Source of the DNA: Sulfurovum sp.
Lineage (GTDB): Bacteria > Campylobacterota > Campylobacteria > Campylobacterales > Sulfurovaceae
Reading direction: 5' to 3'
Assembly (NCBI GenBank): GCA_030826885.1
Contig: JAUUDF010000011.1
Location: 1 to 54,326, forward strand
Length of the DNA stretch: 54,326 bases
This document shows positions 15,531-29,921 of the stretch, one piece after another. Numbering within the stretch: position 1 is the stretch's first letter; the number at the start of each line of letters is the position of its first letter. The position numbers and the translations under genes are program-made. The notes beneath the pieces were generated by a model that was not told the DNA's origin, did no database searches, and saw nothing but the letters and a program-made list of their open reading frames with translations.

Positions 15531-16784
15531 CTATACTGCTTCGGCAGCCTGCAGGAAATCCTCTGCGATCATTTCGGGGTCTTCAAGCCCTATGGAGACA
15601 CGAATAAGCCCGTCCGTTACACCGTTGAAACGGCGGTCCTCTTCTGAAAAGTCACTGTATATGGTACTTTGCATATGCAGTGCCAGCGTTCTGTTGTCCC
15701 CTATATTGGCGGTCAGGGTCACAAGCTTCAGTGCATCGAGCAGTCTGAAAGCGCGTTCGGGTGTACCGCACTCAAGGGTCAGCAGCGGACCGCAGCCGTT
15801 GGCAAAATCGCTTTTATACCGGTCATGATCCTCACTCTTCGACAGCGAGGGATGATTGACCTCTATTCCTTCAGGCAGCGACGCATCAAGCAGTGCAGCG
15901 ACCTTTGCTACAGAGCGGTTGACACGCTCTACCCGCAGCGCCAGGGTTTCGAGCCCGAGCATGGTCAGAAATGACCCAAAGGCATTGGCGGTCATACCCA
16001 TGTCCCGAATTGCACGTTTTTTACAAATAGGGATAAAGGCTTTTTTGCCCGCCTTTTTAACAAACTTGTGCAGGTCGGCATACTTGGCATTAAGCAGTTT
16101 GTCATTTTCGGGCGATACGGCACGGAAAACGGCAATTCCTCCCAGTGCAGCGGAGTGTCCCGACATATTCTTGGTAGATGAGTGCACGACAATATCGGCT
16201 CCCATATCAAGCGGGCGAACCAACAGAGGCGTTGCCGTATTGTCCACTACCAGCAGCGTCTCATAGTGGCTACATAAATCGGCGATACGTTTGATGTCCG
16301 GCAGTCTCAGGCTTGGGTTGCCGACACTCTCCATGAGTACCATTTTGACACCTGAAGCAAGTTTCTCTTCCATATAGTCGAAGTCCTCGATGCCGCAGAA
16401 GGTATTGGCAACGCCAAAGCGTTTGAGTGTCTCGTTGACAAGCGTATAGGTACCGCCGAAGAATCCGCCTACGCACAGTACTTCATCACCGCTTTTGAGC
16501 AGTGCAGTCGTAACCATGGAGAGCGCCCCCATACCCGAAGCGGTGGCAATGGCGCCGAAACCGCCTTCCATCTTTGCCACAATACTTTCGAGTTTTCCGT
16601 TTGTCGGATTTCCGACTCTTGCATAGAGCGGCTTGGTCACTTCACCAGAGAATATCCCCTCTGCCTCTTCGGCACTTTCATAGCCGAATGCTGCCGAAGG
16701 AACGACAGTCGGTGCAATGGGGCCGGTTTTAGAGCCTACATTTTGTACAAGCAGTGTGTTGAAATAGTCAAAATCGTATTGCAT
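15531..16784 (-). CDS. metY: O-acetylhomoserine sulfhydrylase-type PLP enzyme
   Basis: A 417-residue Cys/Met-metabolism PLP enzyme. The cofactor lysine is Lys205 in HSSTKNMSGH. The phosphate-binding TASGMGAL is at residues 81-88, Tyr and Arg in YARVGNP at 54-60, and the cofactor Asp in VVDNTATP at 179-186. Enzymes of this type condense sulfide with O-acetyl- or O-succinyl-homoserine to give homocysteine for methionine. Cystathionine gamma-synthase or gamma-lyase are alternatives that sequence alone does not exclude. The ATG at 16784 has a GGAAG ribosome-binding site and lies 14 bases after the Rrf2 gene, so the regulator and enzyme share an operon. Confidence 0.85.
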   Translation of the reverse strand: MQYDFDYFNTLLVQNVGSKTGPIAPTVVPSAAFGYESAEEAEGIFSGEVTKPLYARVGNPTNGKLESIVAKMEGGFGAIATASGMGALSMVTTALLKSGDEVLCVGGFFGGTYTLVNETLKRFGVANTFCGIEDFDYMEEKLASGVKMVLMESVGNPSLRLPDIKRIADLCSHYETLLVVDNTATPLLVRPLDMGADIVVHSSTKNMSGHSAALGGIAVFRAVSPENDKLLNAKYADLHKFVKKAGKKAFIPICKKRAIRDMGMTANAFGSFLTMLGLETLALRVERVNRSVAKVAALLDASLPEGIEVNHPSLSKSEDHDRYKSDFANGCGPLLTLECGTPERAFRLLDALKLVTLTANIGDNRTLALHMQSTIYSDFSEEDRRFNGVTDGLIRVSIGLEDPEMIAEDFLQAAEAV

Positions 16785-16798
16785 AGGTATCTTCCTGG

Positions 16799-17212
16799 TT
16801 ATATAGAGTAATTGAGGGTATGATTGGCTTTCATCTGATAGTTCTTCAGTTCCGAAAGCGGTATGGAGAAAACCTCCATGATCCCTTGTTGTATGTCATC
16901 CCAAAACAGTTTAAGCGCCATATTGTCCGTACGGGCCAGGTCGGCAAAGGCATCTGTCTCCAGAATGGTGATAATGTCTTTGAGTGTAATATCTTTGAGG
17001 TCTTTGGCAAGACGATAACCGCCATGCGCCCCCTTGACACTCAGAAGAATACCCTGTTTCTTGAGTTCGAGCAGAATCTGTTCGAGAAAACTCTGGGGAA
17101 CGGCTGCACGTGCGGCGATCTCTTTTATCTTGAGTACTTCATTCTCCTGAATGGCACCAAGTTCATGGAGTGCAGCAACTGCATAAATAGTCTTAGTTGA
17201 AATTCCTATCAT
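16799..17212 (-). CDS. Rrf2-family transcription regulator without cluster cysteines (CymR-like)
   Basis: A 137-residue winged-helix regulator. The Rrf2 signature is clear: STKTIYAVAALHEL (5-18), the recognition region with VPQSFLEQILLELKKQG (38-54) and the wing KGAHGGYRLAK (60-70). The protein has no cysteine at all, so it cannot hold the Fe-S cluster of IscR, NsrR or RirA. Cluster-free Rrf2 proteins such as CymR of Firmicutes control cysteine and methionine metabolism through a partner sulfhydrylase. Its place directly before an O-acetylhomoserine sulfhydrylase gene supports a similar role here, as inference. Its 5' end overlaps the DUF4395 gene by 20 bases. Confidence 0.82.
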   Translation of the reverse strand: MIGISTKTIYAVAALHELGAIQENEVLKIKEIAARAAVPQSFLEQILLELKKQGILLSVKGAHGGYRLAKDLKDITLKDIITILETDAFADLARTDNMALKLFWDDIQQGIMEVFSIPLSELKNYQMKANHTLNYSI

Positions 17213-17648
17213 ATTTTATTACCTTTGCTAATTGTAAAGCGTAGTATAGCTTACATCCGATACAAAAATCGAATAGAACTTCAAGGAAGGCACAAAAAAT
17301 CAGGATGAGTGCTACCAGAGAAGCGAGTTTAAAGTATCCAAACAGAGCAATAAAGGTGATCAGGAATGTTGTTGCCAACCCAAGGTAGAGTGCAAACCGT
17401 TTGGGAGACTCGTCAGAATACTTGGGATCTACCTGCCACTGCTTGAGTATGAACTTTCCTGCCCGTGCAAAAGGACTCCATTGCTCCTGTCTGACTGCAC
17501 GCATTGTAAAATCAAAGAGTATAACATACAAAAAGAAGAAACTGTGTGTTACAGCAAACAACACGGTGAACACCAATACCTGAAAAGAGATTACACGTAC
17601 TAAGTTTGTATCGATGCGTCTGTTGGAGATGGGGCATGAAGGAGACAT
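17193..17648 (-). CDS. DUF4395 family membrane protein
   Basis: A 151-residue protein with the DUF4395 layout: an N-terminal CPISNRRID...VR segment, two pairs of predicted membrane helices (about 20-48 and 88-132), and the C-terminal cysteine motif FCIGCKLYY (127-135). The CPxS and CxGC motifs are typical of the family and suggest thiol chemistry, often near thioredoxin or rhodanese genes. Function is not established. It begins with ATG at 17646-17648 after AAAGGAC, 28 bases beyond the T-run that ends the putative structured RNA. It heads the operon with the Rrf2 regulator and metY. Confidence 0.8.
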   Translation of the reverse strand: MSPSCPISNRRIDTNLVRVISFQVLVFTVLFAVTHSFFFLYVILFDFTMRAVRQEQWSPFARAGKFILKQWQVDPKYSDESPKRFALYLGLATTFLITFIALFGYFKLASLVALILIFCAFLEVLFDFCIGCKLYYALQLAKVIKYDRNFN

Positions 17649-17675
17649 AAAAGTCCTTTGTTAAAAACGTTACAT

Positions 17676-17835
17676 AAAAATAAAAAGCACCTCTAAAGAC
17701 CCTGGTTAGCCACAACATCCGGTTTCTGTTTCAAGATTTAACAATATAAAGGGGAGACTACAACAATCTTAGGAAACCAAATGCCCTTGTCCACCGTGAT
17801 TTACCAGGGTTTTTACAAGTGCTTTTCACTTTTAT
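17676..17835 (-). ncRNA. Rod-shaped structured RNA, 6S RNA-like candidate
   Basis: A minus-strand transcript of about 160 bases from a strong promoter would fold into one long interrupted hairpin. From the ends inward the arms are AAAAGCAC (17819-17826) with GTGCTTTT (17683-17690), ACCCTGGT (17803-17810) with ACCAGGGT (17699-17706), GGTTTC (17773-17778) with GAAACC (17721-17726), and AAGATT (17765-17770) with AATCTT (17733-17738). All four are perfect. Between the second and third stems lies a large asymmetric bubble (24 and 14 bases), and a T-rich run follows the last arm. Long stem, central bubble, sigma-70 promoter and size are those of 6S RNA, the RNA-polymerase-binding regulator. The alternative is a leader/attenuator of the DUF4395-rrf2-metY operon 28 bases downstream. 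I see no known SAM-riboswitch core. Confidence 0.5.
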
Positions 17836-17841
17836 GACCGA

Positions 17842-17870
17842 AGTATAGCCTATTTCAGAATTAATGTCAA
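17842..17870 (-). promoter_or_regulatory. Near-consensus sigma-70 promoter (TTGACA-17-TATACT)
   Basis: On the minus strand TTGACA (17865-17870) and TATACT (17842-17847) are separated by exactly 17 bases. It is the only promoter in the window with a full -35 box, which is unusual for this phylum and fits a highly transcribed stable RNA. The expected start is near 17835. Confidence 0.8.
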
Positions 17871-17915
17871 GTAAATCTATTGATTTTATTAATTTTATCT
17901 GTTTTCCCCCTTGTT

Positions 17916-19403
17916 TCAGGAAGTGAGAAAGGTATGAAAATGGCTTCTTATATACGCCAGAGCATCCTTTTTTGTACCGATTGTACCATCCATCTGTTTT
18001 TCGTAAACATCATCGAGTATTGTCTTAAAGTGTGGAGACGGTCGCATACCGAGGGCAATAAGATCTCTGCCCAAAATCAGAGGTTTCAACGGTTCATCTT
18101 TAACCTGAAGTCTCTGCGCCTCTTTTAAAAGCCACTCGCCTGCTGCGTACTCTCCCTGCTGCGCTTCAGGTGTTGTGCGTCCCAGAAAGTCGGCTTTGGC
18201 GACCAGAACCAGCTCTTCAATGTTCACCTTTGTCGCCAAACGGCGAATGGCGCCTGCCTTGGCACCCTGTGCATAAAACTGCGAAGGTTTGAGGTGGTGT
18301 TCTACCAGCGGCAAAATGCTTTCTATGAAGTCATGTTCATCGGTAAGCCGATAGAGCAGATCTCTTGTGGGCTCTATGCCGGCTCGTTCATGCCCAGTCG
18401 AACGTACTCGTTTGACATTATGAAGATCCGGAAACGGGTTTTGCGAAAGAATCTCCTTCCATGCCCTCACCTCTCCACTCTCAAACTCGATTGTTGTCGT
18501 CACAGGTTTACCCAGATCGTGACAGAGTTCGGCAAACAAAAGCTTTAACCTCTGTTTTTCATACATAGGATGTTCCTGATGCACATCTAAAAGCTGCTGC
18601 ATCGCATCCACAGACATCATGGTGTGTATCCACACATCCCCTTCAGGATGCCATTTGGGATCCTGCGGACAGCAAATAAGCGCATGCAGTTGGGGGAAAT
18701 AGCGTTCTGTGATGCCCCACTCTCTCATCAGTTCAAAGCCGACCGAGGGTTTGGGCGCTTTTAGCAGCAGTTTTTTCCACTCTGCATAGACCCGCTCTTT
18801 GGGCAGTTCCTCAAGCATGCCCTCCCGGACCATCTCTTTGCACAATGCTGCAGTTTCGGGTGCTACCCTGAAACCGAAACGTGCAGCAAACTGCATGGCG
18901 CGGTAAATACGAAGTGGGTCTTCTATAAAAGTGGCATCATCAATGTGCCTCAGCATACCGTTTTGTATATCCTGCAGGCCTCCGTAAGGATCGATAATCT
19001 CACCGCTTTGTATATCCAGTCCCATGGCATTGATGGTAAAATCTCTGCGTCGTGCGGCCGTAGCAAAATCGAGCGAGCCGTTGACGGTTACGTCAAATCC
19101 GCGATGGCCTCTGCCGGTTTTTTCTTCCGTTCTGGGCAAGGAGAAGTCATATTCCTCCCCGTTGCTATGCAGTTTTACCACACCGAAACTCTTGCCTACC
19201 TGACTGACGCTGCCAAAGGGTTTAAGAAGGGCTTCGAGTGTATCAAGAGAATCAAGAGAGTAGACTTCCACATCGAAGTCTTTGAGCGTTGTTCCCATGA
19301 CCAAGTCTCTGACAGCACCACCGACAAGTATGGCTCTGGCACCTGCTTTGTGCAGTGCATCGGCGATCTTGCTCAGTTGTGTTTGCTCAAAGGTCAATCG
19401 CAT
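17916..19403 (-). CDS. cca: CCA tRNA nucleotidyltransferase / polyA-polymerase-like with HD domain
   Basis: A 495-residue class II nucleotidyltransferase. The head domain carries LVGGAVRDLVMG and the catalytic DFDVEVY. RRDFTINAMG and the ...HIDDATFIEDPLRIYRAMQFAARF stretch follow, then the ERVYAEW neck/body motif. The C-terminal half has an HD-type region around CHDLGKPVT (residues about 300-310) and a long helical tail. It repairs or builds the 3' CCA of tRNA; the HD part in related enzymes acts on 2',3'-cyclic phosphates. Its first bases overlap the DUF2237 gene by 17, so the two are likely co-expressed. Confidence 0.9.
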   Translation of the reverse strand: MRLTFEQTQLSKIADALHKAGARAILVGGAVRDLVMGTTLKDFDVEVYSLDSLDTLEALLKPFGSVSQVGKSFGVVKLHSNGEEYDFSLPRTEEKTGRGHRGFDVTVNGSLDFATAARRRDFTINAMGLDIQSGEIIDPYGGLQDIQNGMLRHIDDATFIEDPLRIYRAMQFAARFGFRVAPETAALCKEMVREGMLEELPKERVYAEWKKLLLKAPKPSVGFELMREWGITERYFPQLHALICCPQDPKWHPEGDVWIHTMMSVDAMQQLLDVHQEHPMYEKQRLKLLFAELCHDLGKPVTTTIEFESGEVRAWKEILSQNPFPDLHNVKRVRSTGHERAGIEPTRDLLYRLTDEHDFIESILPLVEHHLKPSQFYAQGAKAGAIRRLATKVNIEELVLVAKADFLGRTTPEAQQGEYAAGEWLLKEAQRLQVKDEPLKPLILGRDLIALGMRPSPHFKTILDDVYEKQMDGTIGTKKDALAYIRSHFHTFLTS

Positions 19404-29162: not shown

Positions 29163-29921
29163 TCACCCTTCCTCCAGCGATTTTGCTGCTTTTAAAATGG
29201 TCTCGATCTGCATGGCGACCGGTTTATTTTTCGATACTATAACATAATCTTGCTCAACGATCACTTCGAGTCCTTCGCAAAGTGCCAAACCTGCGGCAAA
29301 ATCGTAAATGCGAAAGGTACCGACAAAGAGTACAAAATTAACCGTATGGGCATAGGCGAGAGAGAGTGCAATGGCACCGGGTGCACGAAACTTCAGACCA
29401 GATTCGTCCAAAAGTCCTATGACCTCGGGATGTGCATAGGCTTTCTCGAAAAGCCCTATTTCAGCATGCGGAACTGATGTTACAGCATGAAATACATCGC
29501 TAAAGAGTCTTCCCTGAAGCAGAGGTTTTCCCGGTGTTTTAATGAACACATCCCCATTGGCAAGGTTGCAGACAACTGCAGCATCGAGTATGCCCTGGGC
29601 ATTGACACGGGCGACAGAAGTACCATAATAGGGAAAGTGTGATAGTGCATTGGAGGAGCCGTCGATGGGGTCGAGAATGATCTGTGCATCCCCCTCCCCT
29701 ATGATGCCTGACTCTTCAGACTCAATATAGCCAAAAGACGAGAGATGTTTCACAAAGACAGATTCGGCAAAGAGATCAAGCTTTGAACTCACATCACCAC
29801 CCGCACCGGCAACCGTTTTGTCGAACCATTCTTCCTGAAAATCGTTTTGCAACGCTTCGGAAATGGTCTCATTCGCTCTGATGCAGGCTTCTACAAAAGG
29901 GTCAAAACTATGCTTTGTGAT
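29163..29921 (-). CDS. Inositol-monophosphatase-family phosphatase
   Basis: The metal- and substrate-binding motifs are SEESG (about residue 67 onward), DPIDGSSN and a shortened C-terminal DFAAGLALCEG. Related enzymes dephosphorylate inositol phosphate, 3'-phosphoadenosine phosphate or fructose bisphosphate. A TTG start at 29852 would give 229 residues but would cut off the family's first helix. That helix is encoded in frame just upstream (FDPFVEACIRANETISEAL), yet no ATG, GTG or TTG precedes it before the gltB stop. The coordinate given uses an ATC codon 6 bases after GGGGA as the likely start. This end is uncertain. The gene is coupled to gltB upstream and accD downstream. Confidence 0.8.
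   Translation of the reverse strand: MTKHSFDPFVEACIRANETISEALQNDFQEEWFDKTVAGAGGDVSSKLDLFAESVFVKHLSSFGYIESEESGIIGEGDAQIILDPIDGSSNALSHFPYYGTSVARVNAQGILDAAVVCNLANGDVFIKTPGKPLLQGRLFSDVFHAVTSVPHAEIGLFEKAYAHPEVIGLLDESGLKFRAPGAIALSLAYAHTVNFVLFVGTFRIYDFAAGLALCEGLEVIVEQDYVIVSKNKPVAMQIETILKAAKSLEEG

What the first reader, a model, noticed from the sequence alone, without database searches (positions are those of the whole stretch)
17676..17870. Unannotated 6S-like RNA behind the only full-consensus promoter in the window
TTGACA-17-TATACT drives about 160 bases that form a rod with four perfect nested stems, a central bubble and a T-rich end. The alternative, a leader controlling the DUF4395-rrf2-metY sulfur operon, would be just as interesting because no known riboswitch core is visible.
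Basis: partly seen in the sequence, partly recalled or inferred. Interest (0 to 1): 0.75.

Follow-up and report, generated by a model that had tools for sequence, protein, structure and literature searches.

The report
Sulfur-operon leader RNA, not 6S
A Sulfurovum sulfur operon starts with a long hairpin RNA that is not the genome's 6S RNA but an undescribed leader element, apparently built from the ends of an old transposon and kept in shape by compensating mutations.

Summary
The feature is real and lies on the minus strand: palindrome 17886-17873, TTGACA-17-TATACT, then a rod RNA of about 157 nt (17835-17679) ending 30 nt before DUF4395-rrf2-metY. Fold energy is -60.3 kcal/mol, z -5.75. A covariance model gives one strong match in each of 43 of 78 genomes of the genus (mostly titled Sulfurovum). 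Compensatory changes occur at 18 of 28 pairs.

It is not 6S. No Rfam family reaches threshold. The same genome carries the probable Campylobacterota 6S locus upstream of purD (RF01069, 85.4 bits; published 6S position, PMC3847290). Six related operons have a promoter region without the RNA.

The outer stem nearly matches the terminal repeats of an IS5-type element and its miniature derivatives in these genomes. I read it as an old miniature transposon domesticated as a 5' leader. Covarying helices display two conserved unpaired motifs, GGACAAGGG and GUCUCCC. The mechanism (mRNA protection or processing plus recognition of those motifs) is inferred; there are no expression data.

The parts
17873..17886 (-). 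Palindromic operator AAATCAATAGATTT directly upstream of the -35 box, probably bound by the Rrf2 regulator
   Evidence: Pattern with up to 2 mismatches in 30 of 60 relatives; reversed-pattern control 1 hit in all. Also, with 2 mismatches, upstream of rrf2 in another family (L097) and upstream of FadL-family porin ORFs. Binding by Rrf2 is inferred.
17865..17870 (-). -35 box TTGACA
17842..17847 (-). -10 box TATACT, spacer 17
17679..17835 (-). Structured leader RNA (extent of the covariance-model match; start point predicted from the promoter)
17804..17822 (-). Outer stem P1, 5' strand GCACTTGTAAAAACCCTGG, related to an IS5-type terminal inverted repeat
17784..17792 (-). Conserved one-sided bulge region GGACAAGGG
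17740..17763 (-). Conserved apical loop region UUGUAGUCUCCCCUUUAUAUUGUU
17687..17705 (-). Outer stem P1, 3' strand CCAGGGTCTTTAGAGGTGC, the better match to the inverted repeat
   Evidence: 17685-17703 on the plus strand is the only match in the window to the repeat with up to 3 mismatches, 0.00 expected
17193..17648 (-). DUF4395 protein, first gene of the operon
   Evidence: PF14340, E 1.4e-27
16799..17212 (-). Rrf2-family regulator; best specific model CymR, below its cut-off
   Evidence: PF02082, NF047409 76 bits against a cut-off of 195
15531..16784 (-). metY-like O-acetylhomoserine sulfhydrylase family enzyme
   Evidence: PF01053; TIGR01326 is the best NCBIfam model, 301.5 bits, below its cut-off of 495.1

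Best explanation
Shown: a structured RNA, found strongly only in this genus, occupies the 5' untranslated region of the DUF4395-rrf2-metY operon and evolves under base-pairing constraint. It is not the genome's 6S RNA. Strongly indicated: its outer stem descends from the terminal inverted repeats of an IS5-type miniature element (MITE) that became fixed in this leader before most sampled operons diverged and was later lost or decayed more than once. Inferred mechanism: the operon promoter, controlled by Rrf2 at the palindrome, makes an mRNA whose 5' end is closed at once by the rod. This shields the 5' end from 5'-dependent decay and offers a double strand to RNase III. The nearly invariant bulge GGACAAGGG and loop GUCUCCC are the recognition surface for a protein, metabolite or partner RNA that tunes stability or translation of the sulfur operon. 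A processed, stable RNA of about 155 nt is a likely by-product.
For: Fold z -5.75. One strong match per genome in 43 of 78 genus genomes, E 3.1e-15 or lower. Both-side changes at 11 of 28 pairs on a sequence-only alignment of 23, and at 18 of 28 pairs with 96.9% of cells paired on 43 sequences, 0 of 500 shuffles as high, slid controls at most 51.7%. rrf2 downstream in 43 of 43 loci (one cut by a contig end) and DUF4395 in 42 of 43. A separate 6S-type locus at purD in the same genome. Six operons have a promoter region without the RNA; three of them fall inside well-supported RNA-bearing clades (support 0.991 and 0.994). P1 matches a repeat that is multi-copy in many relatives and occurs in 16 of 39 sampled genomes outside the genus. 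It flanks elements of 50-267 bp, 8 of 12 with identical 4-bp flanks by eye, and one 1.35 kb element with an IS5 transposase. Both leader arms match the element consensus better than any of 2000 shuffles. Bulge unpaired (mean probability 0.7 or more) in 38 of 43, loop in 36 of 43. 5' single-stranded tail 0-14 nt from the predicted start.
Against: No expression platform is visible. The SD pairs with the RNA at 0.02 or less in 41 of 43 folds (0.39 and 0.2 in the others; it is partly paired locally, unpaired 0.15-0.79), and loop-to-own-start duplexes are no better than swapped ones (-8.29 against -8.10, sd 2.83). The RNA is absent in 6 and degenerate in 4 of 53 operon loci examined, so it is dispensable. 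No 4-bp duplication was recognised around the leader, its interior resembles no mobile copy that I saw, and the arm-specific resemblance is moderate (5' arm nearer arm A in 26 of 43, nearer B in 8, tie 9; 3' arm nearer B in 33, A in 4, tie 6). Transcription was not observed.
Confidence: 0.6

Rival explanations
1. Trans-acting small RNA: the leader is processed or terminated into a stable RNA whose C-rich apical loop (UCUCCC, resembling the anti-Shine-Dalgarno sequence) pairs with start regions of other sulfur genes.
For: The loop is the most persistent element: it stays in the degenerate copies that lost the bulge and is unpaired (0.7 or more) in 36 of 43. No pairing with its own start region, so a cis target for the loop is not evident.
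Against: At this operon in all 43 loci and with no second strong match in any of the 78 genomes; no consistent terminator was seen; no target was searched genome-wide.
Confidence: 0.25
2. Metabolite riboswitch for a sulfur or methionine-pathway compound.
For: Covarying helices around nearly invariant unpaired motifs, 5' leader of a metY operon.
Against: No Rfam match at threshold. No terminator listed and no SD-sequestering pairing predicted. The distance to the start codon varies widely (10-117 nt after the model end).
Confidence: 0.15
3. 6S RNA, or a second 6S copy, sequestering RNA polymerase.
For: Rod shape, length near 160 nt, near-consensus promoter.
Against: No RF00013 match; separate RF01069 locus in 40 of the 43 leader-bearing genomes; one-sided bulge; absent from 6 related operons.
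Confidence: 0.03
4. A passive remnant of a mobile element without function.
For: Inverted-repeat ends shared with mobile elements; repeated loss.
Against: 18 of 28 pairs with compensatory changes and nearly invariant unpaired motifs across operons whose DUF4395 proteins are down to about 48% identical to the window's.
Confidence: 0.07

Closest known systems
Correia/NEMIS elements of Neisseria (MITEs whose transcribed inverted repeats are cut by RNase III)
   Same: Miniature element with long inverted repeats, transcribed with a neighbouring gene and folding into a long stem (PMC10969869 and PMC2229807, passages read)
   Different: Those are multi-copy repeats; this one has one strong match per genome, at one operon, with covarying helices and its own conserved bulge and loop
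Campylobacterota 6S RNA upstream of purD (Rfam RF01069 'purD motif')
   Same: Structured RNA directly upstream of a protein gene in the same genomes
   Different: Different sequence, downstream gene and bubble; both RNAs occur together in 40 of 43 leader-bearing genomes
IS5-family insertion sequence and its MITEs in Campylobacterota (GGGCACCTCTAAAAACCC ends)
   Same: P1 sequence, and moderately the next dozen bases on each arm
   Different: Outermost G pairs lost in the window copy, no target-site duplication recognised, interior unlike the copies seen
QMITE-derived small RNAs of Coxiella (Cbsr3, Cbsr13, Cbsr16)
   Same: Small RNAs that originate from MITEs (reported in PMC10969869, passage read)
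   Different: Here a leader of a sulfur operon, with covariation; transcription not yet shown

Membership tests
6S RNA (RF00013) | Covariance-model match | tested here: not met
   Not among the five sub-threshold matches up to E 10 at 17500-18000; 0 in the own genome
6S RNA (RF00013) | Large two-sided central bubble (recalled feature) | tested here: not met
   Unpaired bases lie on the 5' strand only in the MFE of the window RNA
6S RNA (RF00013) | Being the 6S locus of the genome, upstream of purD in Campylobacterota | tested here: not met
   RF01069 at G000:C3:19460-19590, 85.4 bits; position from PMC3847290
6S RNA (RF00013) | RNA polymerase binding and pRNA synthesis | not testable with these tools
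   Needs RNA-seq or biochemistry
Known riboswitch families (Rfam 15) | Match at or above the gathering score | tested here: not met
   0 matches in the window; none in 11 loci with relatives of the RNA
IS5-type MITE | Terminal inverted repeats of the family | tested here: met
   3' strand 16 of 19 bases, 0.00 expected in the window; both arm consensuses above all 2000 shuffles
IS5-type MITE | Target-site duplication (4 bp, recalled for IS5) | tested here: inconclusive
   Seen by eye in 8 of 12 mobile copies, not recognised around the leader
IS5-type MITE | Several interspersed copies with the same interior | tested here: not met
   One strong match per genome in 43 genomes; the copies in the own genome have other interiors
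cis-acting leader RNA | Conserved linkage to one downstream operon | tested here: met
   rrf2 in 43 of 43, DUF4395 in 42 of 43 loci
cis-acting leader RNA | Expression platform (terminator or SD sequestration) | tested here: not met
   Terminator scan of the window only; SD pairing on 43 leaders

The most novel reading that the evidence does not exclude
A transposon end turned regulator: a single MITE insertion became, in the ancestor of these Sulfurovum operons, a structured RNA with its own recognition motifs (an aptamer-like bulge, or an anti-SD-like C-rich loop acting on other mRNAs) that adds a post-transcriptional layer to an Rrf2-controlled sulfur operon.
Probability: 0.3. Interest if true: 0.8.

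Novelty: new variant of a known kind. Interest (0 to 1): 0.62.

Why it matters
Transcribed MITEs that fold and are cut are known, and a riboswitch made from a MITE has been called conceivable (PMC10969869, passage read). Here is a case with covariation, a conserved position, and natural operons that lost the RNA while keeping a promoter region, which makes the question testable. It also shows that a 6S-like shape is a poor guide: in this lineage the probable 6S locus is matched by Rfam's 'purD motif', while RF00013 matched that place in only 1 of 100 relatives, below its threshold and with strict filters (two further matches at E 2.5 and 7.2 lie elsewhere).

Tried and rejected
6S: rejected (see membership test). 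Anti-SD pairing of the apical loop with the operon's own start region: no co-adaptation, own -8.29 against swapped -8.10 kcal/mol. Pseudoknot between bulge GGG and loop CCC: 94.3% of cells pair, but equally after shuffling and with no covariation, so undecided. Leader peptide: judged unlikely by reading the alignment, since indels in the RNA are not multiples of three. Relatives outside the genus: of 398 genomes of the order, the 13 strong matches are all in the genus; that search scored only the best 7 candidates per genome, so distant relatives could be missed. The eight weaker loci that I inspected (53.4 bits or less, L213-L220) are inverted repeats of the mobile family. The covariance-model alignment A2 is fitted to the structure, so its pair counts lean towards it; A1 (sequence only) is the independent check. 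R1 matches of 54.5 bits or less are hairpins or opposite-strand echoes as far as inspected and were not counted. The tally of 63 of 100 genomes includes genomes whose only match may be the leader's own P1 strand; 16 of the 39 genomes outside the genus match, some with a single copy, and the reversed control gave 0-2 per strand. RNA-less and degenerate operons (10 loci) were picked by hand from DUF4395 hits without a model match, not exhaustively. In one RNA-less locus (L146) the -35 box is altered. The tree is midpoint-rooted with several weak nodes; the L114-L154 pairing has support 0.08, and L144, L148 and L156 rest on weaker nodes or group with degenerate copies. One search used a wrongly recalled accession for purD and was replaced. 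Literature searches on MITEs in Sulfurovum, Sulfurovum with small RNA and riboswitch, Sulfurovum with noncoding RNA and Rfam, DUF4395 and MITE with riboswitch and covariation listed no title or abstract describing this RNA; the library lacks most subscription journals.

Full report
What is there. On the minus strand the window has a palindrome AAATCAATAGATTT, TTGACA, a 17-base spacer and TATACT (17886-17842). A rod-like RNA follows (17835-17679), then an SD and the genes DUF4395, rrf2 and a metY-like enzyme. The rod folds at -60.3 kcal/mol, z -5.75, with 0 of 200 shuffles as good. The opposite strand is unremarkable (z +0.93). The promoter matches 11 of 12 consensus bases; one other such site lies at 29602.

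It is conserved. A nucleotide search found 25 of 100 genomes, the own one included; one of these (L025) is a 25-base match outside the genus that I take for chance. A covariance model built from 23 of them (L012, cut by a contig end, was left out) gives strong matches in 43 of 78 genus genomes, E 3.1e-15 or lower, one place each. Titles of 42 related named loci mostly say Sulfurovum. In 398 genomes of the order, the 13 strong matches were all in the genus, in a search that scored only 7 candidates per genome.

It is under pairing constraint. On a sequence-only alignment 11 of 28 pairs show changes on both sides. On the 43-sequence alignment, which is fitted to the model, it is 18 of 28, with 96.9% of cells paired, no shuffle as high, and slid structures at most 51.7%. 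Two stretches outside the main helices are nearly invariant: the bulge region GGACAAGGG and the loop GUCUCCC. They are unpaired with mean probability 0.7 or more in 38 and 36 of 43 sequences.

It is not 6S. RF00013 gives nothing here or in the genome. A C. jejuni study places 6S RNA upstream of purD in C. jejuni and H. pylori and notes that a shorter version of the region was earlier proposed as a purine riboswitch (PMC3847290, passages read). Upstream of purD this genome carries RF01069, 85.4 bits; 70 of 78 genus genomes have an RF01069 match, including 40 of the 43 that carry the leader. In G064 the weak RF00013 match (29.4 bits, below its cut-off of 46.4) covers the same place. That RF01069 marks the 6S of this genus is therefore an inference from position and this overlap.

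It belongs to the operon. rrf2 follows in 43 of 43 loci (partial at a contig end in L122); DUF4395 in 42 of 43, G014 being the exception with rrf2-metY alone. The upstream neighbour varies (a CCA-adding enzyme gene in the window, a divergent second DUF4395 gene in several others). Among 53 operon loci examined, 43 have the RNA, 4 have degenerate copies that keep the loop (L143, L147, L149, L155; model scores 21.5-41.9 bits), and 6 have a promoter region without it (L144, L145, L146, L148, L154, L156; the -35 box is altered in L146). In a midpoint-rooted tree of the three proteins, L154 and the pair L145-L146 fall inside RNA-bearing clades with support 0.991 and 0.994; the other three rest on weaker nodes or group with degenerate copies. 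This suggests an older RNA with at least two losses.

Where it came from. Weak model matches elsewhere proved to be inverted repeats ending GGGCACCTCTAAAAACCCT. With up to 3 mismatches this repeat occurs in 63 of 100 genomes, up to 31 forward and 29 reverse copies in one, while the reversed pattern gave 0-2 per strand. Some genus genomes may count only through the leader itself; outside the genus 16 of 39 match, several with 10 or more copies. In the window the repeat occurs once, at 17685-17703, exactly at the 3' strand of P1, with 0.00 expected. Twelve copies read in full are 50-267 bp; by eye 8 of them have identical 4-bp flanks. A 1.35 kb copy encodes a transposase matching NCBIfam IS5 model NF033581 at 266.8 bits (cut-off 140). 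The leader's arm consensuses match the element consensus (14.0 and 18.0 against a shuffled maximum of 12.5). Past the repeat, the 3' arm resembles one element arm in 33 of 43 (4 the other, 6 ties) and the 5' arm the other in 26 of 43 (8 the first, 9 ties). I conclude that P1 derives from such an element. The interior is not shared with any copy I saw, and no duplication was recognised at the leader, so an old, domesticated insertion is the reading.

How it may work (inferred). The RNA closes the very 5' end of the mRNA (0-14 unpaired bases from the predicted start) and hardly touches the SD (pairing 0.02 or less in 41 of 43). No terminator is listed in the window. A direct on/off platform is therefore not evident. 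5'-end protection (recalled principle) and double-strand processing, known for transcribed MITEs such as Correia elements (PMC10969869, PMC2229807, passages read), fit the anatomy. The nearly invariant bulge and loop imply a specific partner. Whether that partner is a protein, a metabolite or other mRNAs is open. C-rich loops that target start regions are known from other bacteria's sRNAs (recalled, from no call).

The palindrome next to the -35 box recurs, with up to 2 mismatches, upstream of rrf2 in another family and upstream of porin ORFs, two of which match the FadL family PF03349. Control by the operon's own Rrf2 protein is therefore likely. Its best specific model is the cysteine regulator CymR, well below its cut-off.

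Noticed in passing
G000:C3:19460-19590 (L059:961-1091): Rfam RF01069 'purD RNA motif', labelled Cis-reg, lies where the literature places 6S RNA in Campylobacterota; RF00013 misses it in nearly all sampled relatives, so 6S may be filed under another name in this phylum.
   Followed up: partly
window 17873-17886; L097, L075, L079, L085, L086: Palindrome AAAYCWATWGRTTT abutting -35 boxes, upstream of rrf2 genes and of outer-membrane porin ORFs (L075 and L079 match FadL family PF03349; L085 and L086 look alike by eye): a candidate Rrf2 regulon.
   Followed up: partly
L277, L278, L280, L281 (own genome): Another miniature element with related ends (GGGYACCTCTAAAAACG) and an unrelated interior, 121-202 bp where both ends were found, at least four copies in the window's genome.
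   Followed up: partly
L272:302-1652 (G066): IS5-type element with an open 347-aa transposase frame and the same kind of terminal repeats.
   Followed up: yes
L102, L106, L116, L119, L159, L160, L161: A divergently transcribed second DUF4395 gene (open frames of about 225-251 aa) beside the leader in several genomes.
   Followed up: no
L071/L157 (G014): Operon with leader RNA and rrf2-metY but no DUF4395 gene between them.
   Followed up: partly
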